Positions 11,937-62,686 of a DNA stretch of 64,000 nt are shown piece after piece. The notes under the pieces were generated by a model. It was not told where the DNA came from. It ran no database searches and saw only the letters and a list, made by a program, of their open reading frames with translations. The position numbers and the translations under genes are program-made. Origin of the DNA: Wigglesworthia glossinidia (GTDB taxonomy: Bacteria; Pseudomonadota; Gammaproteobacteria; Enterobacterales; Enterobacteriaceae); NCBI GenBank assembly GCA_030827005.1, contig JAVBJL010000008.1, positions 23,926 through 87,925 on the forward strand, read 5' to 3'. Each line of letters opens with the position of its first letter. Within the stretch, counting starts at the first letter, position 1.

Positions 11937-12635
11937 ATGCTTAATCAACCTTGTATAAAATTTTCTGTTGAAAATTTTTCATCTTTAGTTTTGTATTTAT
12001 ATAGTTTAAAGATAAAAATAATTAAAGAAATGATAAATAAAAAAAAAAAACAATTTCCTAAATTTTTTAAAAATGCACCGTGTGTTATTGACATTTCTAA
12101 TTTAACTGATAGCGACTATGTATACTGGCAAGAAACTTATCATAGTATCTTAAATATGGGACTGCATATTGTTGGTGTTAGCGGACATACTAATAAAAAA
12201 TGGAAATTAATATTAATTAAAAATAATATACCAATTGTAAATCAAGCAAATTCAATGAATAAAATTATTAAACCAAAAAAAAAATTTAATCAAATTTACA
12301 ATAATTTTGTTATTGATAAACCAGTACGTTCCGGACAAGTTATATATGCACAAAACAAAAATTTAATTATTATAAGCACAGTAAATTCTGGTGCAGAAAT
12401 TATTGCAGACGGTAATATTTATGTATATGGCTCTTTACGAGGAAAAGCTTCTGCTGGAGCTTCATCAAAAAACAATCAAAAATATCAAATTTTTTGTACG
12501 CAATTATTAGCAGAATTTATATCAATTTCAGGAAAATATTGGGTTAATGAAACTATTCCAAAATTATATTTAGGAAAACCTGCAAGATTTTTTTTAAAAA
12601 AAAATATATTAACTATTCAAAAATTCAGTTTATAA
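11937..12635 (+). CDS. minC: Septum site-determining protein MinC
   Basis: DKPVRSGQVIYAQNKNLIIISTVNSGAEIIADGNIYVYGSLRGKASAGASSKNNQKYQIFC; followed by minD and minE. Confidence 0.93.
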   Translation: MLNQPCIKFSVENFSSLVLYLYSLKIKIIKEMINKKKKQFPKFFKNAPCVIDISNLTDSDYVYWQETYHSILNMGLHIVGVSGHTNKKWKLILIKNNIPIVNQANSMNKIIKPKKKFNQIYNNFVIDKPVRSGQVIYAQNKNLIIISTVNSGAEIIADGNIYVYGSLRGKASAGASSKNNQKYQIFCTQLLAEFISISGKYWVNETIPKLYLGKPARFFLKKNILTIQKFSL

Positions 12636-12645
12636 AGGAATAATT

Positions 12646-13479
12646 ATGACAAAAATTTTAGCAATTACTTCAGGAAAAGGAGGGGTGGGAAAAACTACAT
12701 CTAGCGCTTCAATAGCTACAGGTTTGGCTATTTTAAAAAAAAAAACTGTAGTAATCGATTTTGATATTGGATTAAGAAATCTTGATTTAATTATGGGATG
12801 CGAAAGAAGAGTAGTATATGATTTAGTGAATGTTATTCAGGGAGAAGCGTCATTAAATCAAGCTTTAATTAAAGATAAATATACTGATAAATTATATATT
12901 TTACCAGCATCGCAAACAAAAGACAAAAACATATTAACATGCGAATCTGTTGATATGATGTTAAAAAATTTGCAAGATATGGAATTTGATTTTATTATAT
13001 GTGACTCCCCGGCAGGTATTGAAAAAGGGGCTCTTATTTCTTTTTATTTTGCAGACGAAGCAATTATCATTACAAATCCTGAAGTATCATCCGTACGTGA
13101 TTCAGATAGAATTTTAGGCATATTATCATCAAAATCATATCGTGCTGAAAATGATCTTGAACCTATAAAAGAGCATTTATTATTAACACGATATAATATA
13201 AAACGTGTAATTACGGGGGATATGTTAAGTGCAGAAGATGTAATTGATATTTTACGTATCCCATTACTTGGGATCATACCTGAAGATCCAAATATTTTAA
13301 AAGCTTCAAATCAAGGAAAACCAATTATTTTAAATCAAAAATCACATGCAGGACAAGCATATAAAAAAGTGTCGCATCGTTTATTAGGAGAGAAATGCGC
13401 ATTTAATATATTAAAAAAAGAAAAAAAAGTAGGAATAATTAAACGATTATTTTATGGAATTAAACATGGTATTACTTAA
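12646..13479 (+). CDS. minD: Septum site-determining ATPase MinD
   Basis: SGKGGVGKTTSSASIATGLA, FDIGLRNLDLIMGCERRVVYDLVNV; C-terminal amphipathic tail. Confidence 0.97.
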   Translation: MTKILAITSGKGGVGKTTSSASIATGLAILKKKTVVIDFDIGLRNLDLIMGCERRVVYDLVNVIQGEASLNQALIKDKYTDKLYILPASQTKDKNILTCESVDMMLKNLQDMEFDFIICDSPAGIEKGALISFYFADEAIIITNPEVSSVRDSDRILGILSSKSYRAENDLEPIKEHLLLTRYNIKRVITGDMLSAEDVIDILRIPLLGIIPEDPNILKASNQGKPIILNQKSHAGQAYKKVSHRLLGEKCAFNILKKEKKVGIIKRLFYGIKHGIT

Positions 13480-13739: not shown

Positions 13740-14405
13740 TTATTCTATATATACATTATTAAAATCATAGAAATTATTTTTATTTGAAATTTTTTTATTT
13801 AAAAAATAATTTTTAGCTAAAATAACGATATCTTTGGGATAAATAAATATATGTTTAATATAAACAAGATCCGTATTTTTTTTTTTAAAGATTATTAGTT
13901 CTTGATACTTGTCCCAACTATCTCCTGCTATTATTTGAATATTAGATATATCTCGTATTAATAATAGCATTTTTTTTGGAGTACAAATATGTTCTTTTAA
14001 CATTTTTGTTATATTATTATATTTATAATAAACAGCCCAATGAATTAAATTTTTTTTGAAATTAACCGCAATTAAAATTTTTATGCAATCAGTATATCTA
14101 AAAATTCTTTTAGATAATATATGCAAATAAGATATTCCTAGAATTGGTAATTTTTTAGTTAGAGATAGCCCTTGCATAATCGAAATGCTGATACGTAATC
14201 CTAATAAACTTCCTGGTCCTTTATTAAAAATAAGATAATCAATATTTGAAAATGATAAACATAAATTATGTAAAATATTATCTATTATATAAAAGATATA
14301 TTTTGTATGTTTTTTTTGTATAAATAATTCGGATAAAATTTTAGTATCTTTCATACAAGTTACCGAACAAATTTTACTTACACAGTCTATTGCAAGAAGA
14401 TTCAT
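13740..14405 (-). CDS. tsaB: tRNA threonylcarbamoyladenosine biosynthesis protein TsaB
   Basis: LLAIDCVSKICSV, FNKGPGSLLGLRISISIMQGLS; TsaB/YeaZ family. Confidence 0.85.
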   Translation of the reverse strand: MNLLAIDCVSKICSVTCMKDTKILSELFIQKKHTKYIFYIIDNILHNLCLSFSNIDYLIFNKGPGSLLGLRISISIMQGLSLTKKLPILGISYLHILSKRIFRYTDCIKILIAVNFKKNLIHWAVYYKYNNITKMLKEHICTPKKMLLLIRDISNIQIIAGDSWDKYQELIIFKKKNTDLVYIKHIFIYPKDIVILAKNYFLNKKISNKNNFYDFNNVYIE

Positions 14406-59406: not shown

Positions 59407-60390
59407 ATGTTAAAAAATTCTTTAGTTTCAACTTTTGATTTTGTTAAATCTGGAAAAAAAATATTAGCTTTAGAATTAAAAAATTTACAACAGCTACATC
59501 AATGTATTAATCATAATTTTCAAAAAGCTGGAGAAATTTTATTAAATTGTAGCGGAAAAATAATAACTATGGGTATTGGAAAATCGGGATATATAGCTAG
59601 AAAATTAGCTGCTACATTTTCTAGTACCGGAAATCCTTCTTTTTTTATTCATCCAACAGAAGCAAGTCATGGAGATCTCGGTATGTTATCATCTGGAGAT
59701 ATTATAGTTGCCTTTTCTAAATCCGGAGAATCTCACGAAATAATTGTTTTGATTTCTTTTATCAAACATTTAGATATTCCTTATATTTGTATTACTGAAA
59801 ATCCTTCAAGCACTATTGCAAAATCAGCAAATGTTTATATTTCTATTCATAAAACACAAGAAGCTTGTGCTTTAGGTGCTCCTACTACTAGCACGACTGC
59901 TGCATTAATTATAGGAGATGCATTAGCTATTTCATTAGCACGTGCGAAAAATTTTAATGTTAAAAAATTTTCTTTTTTACATCCTGGAGGTTTATTAGGA
60001 AAAAAACTATTGATACGTGTACATGAAATAATGCGTGCTAAAAATGATATCCCAGTCGTCGATTGGACATGTTCTGTTTTTCATGCAATTATAGAAATTG
60101 CAAAAAAAAATTTTGGAACCGTGGTAGTTTTAAATAATCATAAAAAAATATTAGGTGTTTTTACATCAAAAATTCTTATTAGTCTATCTAAATTAGATTT
60201 AGACTTCAGAAACACTAATATTAAAACTGTTATGACATCTACATTTAAAATAATTCATCCAAATATTTTGGCTTCAAAAGCATTAGAAGAAATGAAATAT
60301 AGCAATGTAAAATTTTTATTAGTAGCAATTAATAGCTATCTTCTTGGAATTATTCAAATGCGCGATATATTAAACATTGGATTATATTAA
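59407..60390 (+). CDS. kdsD: Arabinose-5-phosphate isomerase KdsD
   Basis: SIS domain GIGKSGYIARKLAATFSSTGNPSFFIHPTEASHGDLGM plus CBS repeats. Confidence 0.95.
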   Translation: MLKNSLVSTFDFVKSGKKILALELKNLQQLHQCINHNFQKAGEILLNCSGKIITMGIGKSGYIARKLAATFSSTGNPSFFIHPTEASHGDLGMLSSGDIIVAFSKSGESHEIIVLISFIKHLDIPYICITENPSSTIAKSANVYISIHKTQEACALGAPTTSTTAALIIGDALAISLARAKNFNVKKFSFLHPGGLLGKKLLIRVHEIMRAKNDIPVVDWTCSVFHAIIEIAKKNFGTVVVLNNHKKILGVFTSKILISLSKLDLDFRNTNIKTVMTSTFKIIHPNILASKALEEMKYSNVKFLLVAINSYLLGIIQMRDILNIGLY

Positions 60391-60780: not shown

Positions 60781-61498
60781 TTATGAAAAATTACCTAAAT
60801 AAATATTTTTTACATAATCATTTTTTTTAATACTTTTTGGAGATCCTGATGCAATTAATTTTCCTTGATGTATAATATATATACGATGACATATCGAAAA
60901 TATTTCACGTACATTATGATCGGTAATTATTATTCCAAGATTTTTTTGGGATAATTTTTGAATAGTTTTTTTAATATTTAAAATTGCAATAGGATCAACG
61001 CCAGAAAATGGCTCATCAAGTAAAATAAATTTTGGTTTAATAGCGAGAGTACGTGCAATCTCTAACCTACGTTTTTCTCCTCCAGATAAAACATATCCTA
61101 AATTATTTTGAATATGGCTGATTTTAAATTCTTCCATTAATTGCTGTGCCAATTGATTTTTTTTATATTGATTTAAATCGTAACGATTTTGTAATGCTAT
61201 CATTAAGTTATCTAATACACTAATTCCCAGTAATATTGATGGTTCTTGTGGTAAGTATCCAATTCCTAATTTGACACGTGCATATAATGGAAGACGACTA
61301 ATATCTTTGTTATTTAATATAATCGATCCTTGATCTGCGCGTAATACTCCGGCTATTATATAAAAAGTAGTTGTTTTACCTGCTCCGTTAGGACCTGCTA
61401 ATCCTATGATTTCTTTAGATTTTACATGCAAATTGATATTAGATATAATTTTTTTTTTTATATGATTTAAATATTTTGTTTACGTTTAATATAGACAT
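60781..61498 (-). CDS. lptB: LPS export ABC transporter ATPase LptB, frameshifted near N-terminus in a poly(A) tract
   Basis: ORF 60781-61431 lacks the first ~23 residues; upstream ATG at 61498 reads MSILNVNKIFKSYKKK, then the 11-A tract (61449-61459) shifts frame; with 10 A it continues IISNINLHVKSKEIIGLAGPNGAGKTT. Walker A, LSGGE and FILLDEPFSGVDP intact. Confidence 0.9.
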
Positions 61499-61513: not shown

Positions 61514-61987
61514 TTACTTAAAAGTAAGTATGGTTTTAATTTGTTTATTACTGTTACCTTTTGCCTGAACAGTATTATTTTTTAAATTAATAATAATATT
61601 GTCACTAATTATAGTTCCGTTTTCTTGTTTAAGATTAACATTTTCTGATAAAAATAATACTTTATCTGTTATATTAAAGCGTATTCTTAAACAAGAAATT
61701 TGCATAATTATTTTATTTTTTTCAATTTGATTTAAAATAATTGGTGCCCCATATCCTTCTAAAAAATTCTTTGCATTTTTTTTTTGTATAAAAATAATCT
61801 TACTGGCTTGCATTATAAAATTTTTGTATTTTAACTGTACTTTTTCAGTAAAAATTACTTTTTTAGATGAAATATCAAAAATTTGATTATGTGAATAGAT
61901 TTGTATTTTTTCTGTTTTTATGTAATTTGCCAATGTTATTTTGCAAAATAAAATACAAAATATTATTAATAAATGTTTATTTTTCAT
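61514..61987 (-). CDS. lptA: LPS transport periplasmic protein LptA
   Basis: 157 aa, signal peptide, OstA-like; between lptC and lptB. Confidence 0.83.
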   Translation of the reverse strand: MKNKHLLIIFCILFCKITLANYIKTEKIQIYSHNQIFDISSKKVIFTEKVQLKYKNFIMQASKIIFIQKKNAKNFLEGYGAPIILNQIEKNKIIMQISCLRIRFNITDKVLFLSENVNLKQENGTIISDNIIINLKNNTVQAKGNSNKQIKTILTFK

Positions 61988-62519
61988 GAAAAATAGTATT
62001 AATTGTATTTAATCTGATAAATTTTTTTTTTAAATTTCCTTGCATACTATTTCCAATAGAATAAAAATATATACCATATAAGCTAGTTTTTTTTTTGGAT
62101 ATGAAATCTTGTGTTTTTAAATTTATTTTAAAATTTTCAGTTAATACTTGTTTAATATGCGAGTGATAAAAAAAATTTTTAATTTTTACACTACCAGATA
62201 AATGTAAGTGATCTTTTGATAAATATGCTTGTATAGATTCTATAATCCATATTGGTACTTGATATTCATCAAAAATGATTATTTTTGGTTGAGAAAAAAA
62301 TACATGTTCATTGTGAGATATAACATGTATATATTGCGCTGAAATACTATATTTTAGCCCATCATGCATATGATGAATAAAAAATTTAGAATAATTTAAT
62401 TGATTTTTGATTTGCATGTAATATAATGCATATGCATTTTTTTTATACAGGGTTATTAATATTCCGGATAAAATTAAATAAAATAATTTTTTTATTTTAT
62501 ATAATCGAGTTATCTTCAT
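61977..62519 (-). CDS. lptC: LPS export protein LptC
   Basis: MKITRLYKIKKLFYLILSGILI N-terminal TM; overlaps lptA by 11 nt; start at 62519 favoured over the 217-aa ORF. Confidence 0.75.
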   Translation of the reverse strand: MKITRLYKIKKLFYLILSGILITLYKKNAYALYYMQIKNQLNYSKFFIHHMHDGLKYSISAQYIHVISHNEHVFFSQPKIIIFDEYQVPIWIIESIQAYLSKDHLHLSGSVKIKNFFYHSHIKQVLTENFKINLKTQDFISKKKTSLYGIYFYSIGNSMQGNLKKKFIRLNTINTIFHEK

Positions 62520-62686
62520 GTTTTTAAAAAAACTATATAATTTTAAAAAATTTTTAAAAAGAAATATCAAAATAAATTTAATATAGTTTAATTTATAATA
62601 TCTTTTACATAACAAATTTATAAAAACCATATTTTATTATAAATGATATAATAATAAATTTAATACTGATTTGAAAAGGAGTATCA

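What the first reader, a model, noticed from the sequence alone, without database searches (positions are those of the whole stretch)
61449..61459. lptB start region is out of frame because of an A11 tract
ATG at 61498 gives MSILNVNKIFKSYKKK, which matches the LptB N-terminus (MATLTAKNLAKAYKG). Eleven A then shift into a stop. With ten A the frame continues IISNINLHVKSKEIIGLAGPNGAGKTT. All catalytic motifs are intact (Walker A, LSGGE, DEPFSGVDP). LptB is essential for LPS export in enterics, and lptA and lptC are present and apparently intact, so selection seems to be acting on a gene unreadable in its literal frame.
Basis: partly seen in the sequence, partly recalled or inferred. Interest (0 to 1): 0.75.

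Follow-up and report, generated by a model that had tools for sequence, protein, structure and literature searches.

The report
Frame-broken lptB at a poly-A tract
In a tsetse-fly symbiont the gene lptB, needed to export lipopolysaccharide, is out of frame at a run of eleven A's but still evolves as a working gene, most likely because RNA polymerase slips on the run and makes some correct messages, as already shown for other genes in aphid and ant symbionts.

Summary
ATG 61498 on the minus strand reads MSILNVNKIFKSYKKKNYI* through an A11 run (61449-61459). The rest of LptB lies in another frame with no internal stop. The genome (719 kb, 10 contigs) fits Wigglesworthia of Glossina palpalis gambiensis. 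The same site is also broken in the sister genome G002 (A12, the opposite shift needed), and in parallel in an unrelated reduced genome, G010 (A11). It is in frame in the third congener, G001, where a T interrupts the run. About 50 other family and order homologues are unbroken. Both sides of the run are under purifying selection between the two broken genomes: dN/dS 0.13-0.14, no stops, little or no rate acceleration. LptA, C, D, F and G are open. recJ and lpxK are broken at homologous A runs in the same two genomes and open in G001, so this is a genome-wide habit. Best explanation: transcriptional slippage on poly(A) restores the frame in a fraction of the mRNAs, the mechanism shown in Buchnera and Blochmannia. 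This is a new member of a known kind. It bears on a published inference that slippage is "not possible" in Wigglesworthia. RNA evidence, and tract length in raw reads, remain untested.

The parts
61439..61498 (-). 5' ORF of lptB: ATG to first stop, MSILNVNKIFKSYKKKNYI* (19 aa)
61449..61459 (-). A11 tract where the frame changes (proposed slippage site)
60781..61448 (-). 3' part of lptB in the other frame: Walker A, LSGGE signature, DEPFSGVDP, stop at 60781-60783
   Evidence: TIGR04406, 301 bits
61429..61431 (-). in-frame TTG, possible internal start; CTG in G002
61514..61987 (-). lptA, intact, 15 nt upstream of lptB
61977..62630 (-). lptC, intact (true start may be further inside)
59407..60390 (+). 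kdsD, convergent neighbour, intact (LPS Kdo pathway)

Best explanation
lptB is a functional gene carrying a tolerated frameshift in a pure poly(A) tract. RNA polymerase slips on the run and makes messages with variable numbers of A. Those with 10 (or 13) A's read MSILNVNKIFKSY-KKK-IISNINLHV... and give a full-length LptB of about 238 aa, while the rest give a 19-aa peptide or another early stop. Shown here: the break, its presence at the homologous codon in a sister species, purifying selection on both sides, and intact partner genes. Inferred: that correction happens, that it is by transcription, and how much protein results.
For: (1) The tract is pure and long enough: A11 here, A12 in G002, A11 in G010, while the in-frame congener G001 has it interrupted (AAAAATAAAAAAA). 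(2) Selection after the tract between the two broken genomes: dN/dS 0.136, 81% aa identity, 0 stops in 2 x 221 codons. This is lower than lptA 0.40, lptC 0.34, lptF/G 0.32-0.39 and lptD 0.44. (3) Selection before the tract: 13 codons, dN/dS 0.127, FKSY invariant. (4) Mean identity to 26 intact relatives is 0.568 and 0.538 for the broken genes against 0.582 for the intact one, so little or no acceleration. (5) Simulated neutral evolution for 10% of the divergence gives no stop in only 1.5% of runs. (6) The pathway is kept: LptF, LptG, LptD and WaaA (KdtA) open, LptA, LptC and KdsD open. (7) G000 and G002 need opposite single-base corrections, -1 and +1, which polymerase slippage can supply and a single kind of ribosomal shift cannot. 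(8) recJ and lpxK are broken at homologous A runs in both genomes and open in G001. (9) Slippage restoring 12-50% of transcripts is documented for Buchnera and Blochmannia (PMC5009743; also PMC3017870).
Against: No RNA or protein data are available here. Baranov et al. [quoted passage not shown] lpxK, another lipid A gene, is also broken in both genomes, so early relaxation of the LPS pathway is not fully excluded. The tract length rests on assemblies.
Confidence: 0.66

Rival explanations
1. The genomic tract length is polymorphic: the many genome copies in a bacteriocyte, or cells of a population, carry A10, A11 and A12, and the in-frame copies supply LptB. The assembly shows only the commonest length.
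For: Long A runs mutate quickly in replication. The symbiont DNA came from pooled bacteriomes if PMC10868223 is the source. Tract length differs between G000 and G002.
Against: Both reported consensus lengths are out of frame, which would be odd if in-frame copies were favoured. recJ and lpxK show the same pattern.
Confidence: 0.12
2. Assembly or sequencing error in a homopolymer: the true tract is A10.
For: Homopolymers are error-prone, and no reads could be examined here.
Against: The probable source is an Illumina assembly at over 1,400x coverage (PMC10868223). G002, an independent genome, is broken at the same codon with another length, and so is unrelated G010. Many other A>=11 tracts checked lie in a single open frame.
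Confidence: 0.07
3. lptB is a very young pseudogene, or the LPS pathway is starting to be lost.
For: lpxK is broken too, once in G000 and twice in G002.
Against: dN/dS 0.136, no stops, at most roughly 5-10% of the divergence compatible with neutrality. All other lpt genes tested are open. Two lineages would have had to break it at the same codon recently.
Confidence: 0.07
4. Ribosomal frameshifting on the A run restores the frame.
For: A AAA AAA is a classical slippery sequence. A -1 shift would fix G002's A12.
Against: G000 needs a +1 (or -2) shift at the same site, the opposite direction. There is no downstream stimulatory structure (z = 0.37).
Confidence: 0.05
5. Translation starts inside, at TTG 61431 or by reinitiation after the 19-aa ORF, giving a 216-aa LptB.
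For: The TTG lies a few bases after the stop.
Against: The codon is CTG in G002 and absent in G010. The product would lack the first strand and the tyrosine at the A-loop position, which the solved LptB aligned here has. The upstream peptide is conserved.
Confidence: 0.03

Closest known systems
Poly(A) frameshifts corrected by transcriptional slippage in Buchnera and Blochmannia (reviewed in PMC5009743; original work Tamas et al. 2008, recalled, full text not held)
   Same: AT-rich reduced symbiont genome, long A tract, otherwise intact gene under purifying selection, envelope functions
   Different: Different genus and gene; no cDNA or protein evidence here
Eight frameshifted Blochmannia vafer genes, with dnaX sharing its break with B. 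floridanus and interrupted by T in B. pennsylvanicus (PMC3017870)
   Same: Break shared by two related species and absent in a third, where the tract is interrupted by T
   Different: Here lptB, recJ and lpxK in Wigglesworthia
Thermus thermophilus dnaX slippage on A9 (described in PMC1088944)
   Same: Slippage on an A run sets the reading frame of the message
   Different: There two useful products are made; here only the corrected one is plausibly useful

Membership tests
LptB (LPS export ATPase) | Sequence match above the curated cut-off of the LptB model, with Walker A, LSGGE and DEPF motifs | tested here: met
   TIGR04406 301 bits vs 240 for the part after the tract; motifs read directly
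LptB (LPS export ATPase) | lptC-lptA-lptB order and presence of LptF, LptG, LptD | tested here: met
LptB (LPS export ATPase) | Single continuous reading frame including the N-terminal strand and A-loop Tyr | tested here: not met
   Frame changes at A11; the Tyr is encoded in the upstream frame
Symbiont gene rescued by poly(A) transcriptional slippage | Frameshift located exactly in a homopolymer of 9 or more, rest of gene open | tested here: met
   A11, no other stops
Symbiont gene rescued by poly(A) transcriptional slippage | Purifying selection despite the break | tested here: met
   dN/dS 0.136 and 0.127; no clear acceleration
Symbiont gene rescued by poly(A) transcriptional slippage | Break persists across species | tested here: met
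   G000 A11 and G002 A12 at the same codon; common ancestry of the break not proven
Symbiont gene rescued by poly(A) transcriptional slippage | Heterogeneous tract length in cDNA with an in-frame fraction | not testable with these tools
   No reads or RNA available
Symbiont gene rescued by poly(A) transcriptional slippage | Full-length protein detected | not testable with these tools
   No proteomics available
Programmed ribosomal -1 frameshift | Same shift direction conserved, with a downstream stimulator | tested here: not met
   Opposite shifts needed in G000 and G002; fold z = 0.37

The most novel reading that the evidence does not exclude
In the Wigglesworthia genomes G000 and G002, poly(A) breaks in several core genes (lptB, lpxK, recJ) are old and jointly kept. 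Slippage would then act as a standing throttle on lipid A synthesis and LPS export inside the host cell, and lptB would be a recurrent site for it because the Lys-rich turn after the A-loop Tyr becomes a pure A run in AT-rich symbionts (also in G010).
Probability: 0.12. Interest if true: 0.65.

Novelty: new member of a known kind. Interest (0 to 1): 0.42.

Why it matters
If true, an LPS-export ATPase that is essential in E. coli depends on polymerase error in an obligate symbiont. It would extend slippage rescue to a genus for which it was argued to be impossible, and it gives a sharp test set: lptB, recJ and lpxK broken in two species and open in the third. It also warns that pipelines calling these genes pseudogenes would wrongly report loss of LPS export.

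Tried and rejected
The first family-wide DNA pattern search used a gap too short to match even the window and is void; a protein search over 79 reduced genomes replaced it. The genome-contig scan returned no symbiont relatives, because its short peptide patterns were poorly suited. Downstream RNA structure was tested and not found. The Rio 2012, Wernegreen 2010 and Tamas 2008 full texts are not held. LptF/LptG comparisons with G001 were discarded because the two paralogues were paired crosswise.

Full report
What is there. On the minus strand the window carries lptC (62630-61977), lptA (61987-61514) and lptB. lptB starts at ATG 61498, runs 13 codons to the A-loop tyrosine, enters eleven A's (61459-61449) and stops at 61441-61439. 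The rest of LptB, to the stop at 60781, is open in another frame. It scores 301 bits against the LptB model, cut-off 240.

Where it is. The window is contig C9 of a 719,035-base, 10-contig genome. Two congeners are held. G001 has a 697,724-base chromosome plus a second contig, and G002 has 719,535 bases; these sizes agree with Wigglesworthia of Glossina brevipalpis (0.698 Mb) and G. morsitans (0.719 Mb). The window's genome fits the 0.719 Mb G. palpalis gambiensis draft (PMC10868223). The match is by size, not by name, and the paper reports 14 contigs, not 10. That draft was Illumina at over 1,400x.

Relatives. Of 61 genomes searched first, all but the most eroded have a LptB-like match, nearly always in a single frame. 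The exceptions at this site are the window (A11), G002 (A12) and G010, a 599-kb genome of another genus (A11). A search of 79 reduced genomes found LptB in 31, and only G010 has the shortened frame at this site; one search shows the N-termini of 50 other loci reading through. G001 is in frame, with the run interrupted by T. The window needs one A fewer (or two more); G002 needs one more (or two fewer).

Selection. Between the two broken genomes the part after the tract has dN/dS 0.136 and the 13 codons before it 0.127 (few sites). Yardsticks: minD 0.10, msbA-like 0.09, lptC 0.34, lptA 0.40, lptD 0.44. Identity to 26 intact relatives is 0.568 (window), 0.538 (G002) and 0.582 (intact G001). A simulation of neutral drift for 10% of the divergence leaves no stop in only 1.5% of runs, and for 5% in 11%. 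So the gene has been under constraint for nearly all of the time since the split. This does not by itself date the break. The break may be ancestral, or it may have arisen twice at a hotspot.

Not alone. Around the window genome's A>=11 runs, Der GTPase (A13) and RecJ (A11) have both halves identified in different frames. LipB, RecD, UbiE and FtsK are likely or start-codon cases. In G002, RecJ (A12) and PssA (A11) have both halves identified, and ThiL (A14) its 5' part. LpxK is broken once in the window genome (A10) and twice in G002 (A11, A11), one site being shared. recJ and lpxK are single open frames in G001.

Mechanism. Slippage of RNA polymerase on the run is the only single mechanism considered that meets the opposite needs of the window and G002. 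Ribosomal frameshifting would need opposite directions and lacks a downstream structure. Internal initiation at TTG 61431 is not conserved and would remove the tyrosine at the A-loop position, which the solved LptB also has; the role of that tyrosine is taken from general knowledge of ABC ATPases. Genomic length heterogeneity among copies is the strongest remaining rival. The slippage step itself is inference.

Known or new. Slippage that restores 12-50% of transcripts in aphid and ant symbionts is established (PMC5009743), and Blochmannia shows the same shared-break, interrupted-in-third-species pattern (PMC3017870). This is a new member of that kind. The one held statement on Wigglesworthia is contrary: Baranov et al. 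[quoted passage not shown] Equal frequencies in coding and noncoding DNA could equally mean that slippage is tolerated. The set lptB, recJ and lpxK makes this testable. No other held paper joins Wigglesworthia with evidence on slippage in it.

Noticed in passing
L004 (G000:C6:37139-37151): GTPase Der (essential in E. coli) changes frame at an A13 run; both halves match TIGR03594.
   Followed up: partly
L121 (G000:C8:32517) and L142 (G002:C1:326782): recJ broken at homologous A11/A12 runs in both genomes; one open frame in G001, where the run is interrupted by G.
   Followed up: yes
L153 (G000:C10, A10 at locus 2128-2137) and L154 (G002, A11 at 1519 and 1969): lpxK, a lipid A gene, broken at a shared A run in both genomes and a second time in G002; open in G001.
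   Followed up: partly
L151 and L141 (G002): pssA (A11) and thiL (A14) change frame at A runs in G002.
   Followed up: partly
L130, L124, L002, L008 (G000): lipB and recD probably broken at A11; ubiE and ftsK have an A11 run beside the start codon that leaves no obvious in-frame start.
   Followed up: no
L037 / L108 (G010, 599,419-base genome): An unrelated reduced genome has lptB out of frame at A11 at the same codon; organism not identified.
   Followed up: partly
window 12039-12050 (minC, A12), 12735-12745 (minD, A11), 13876-13886: Other A>=11 runs in the window stay in frame; slippage would lower their output instead.
   Followed up: partly
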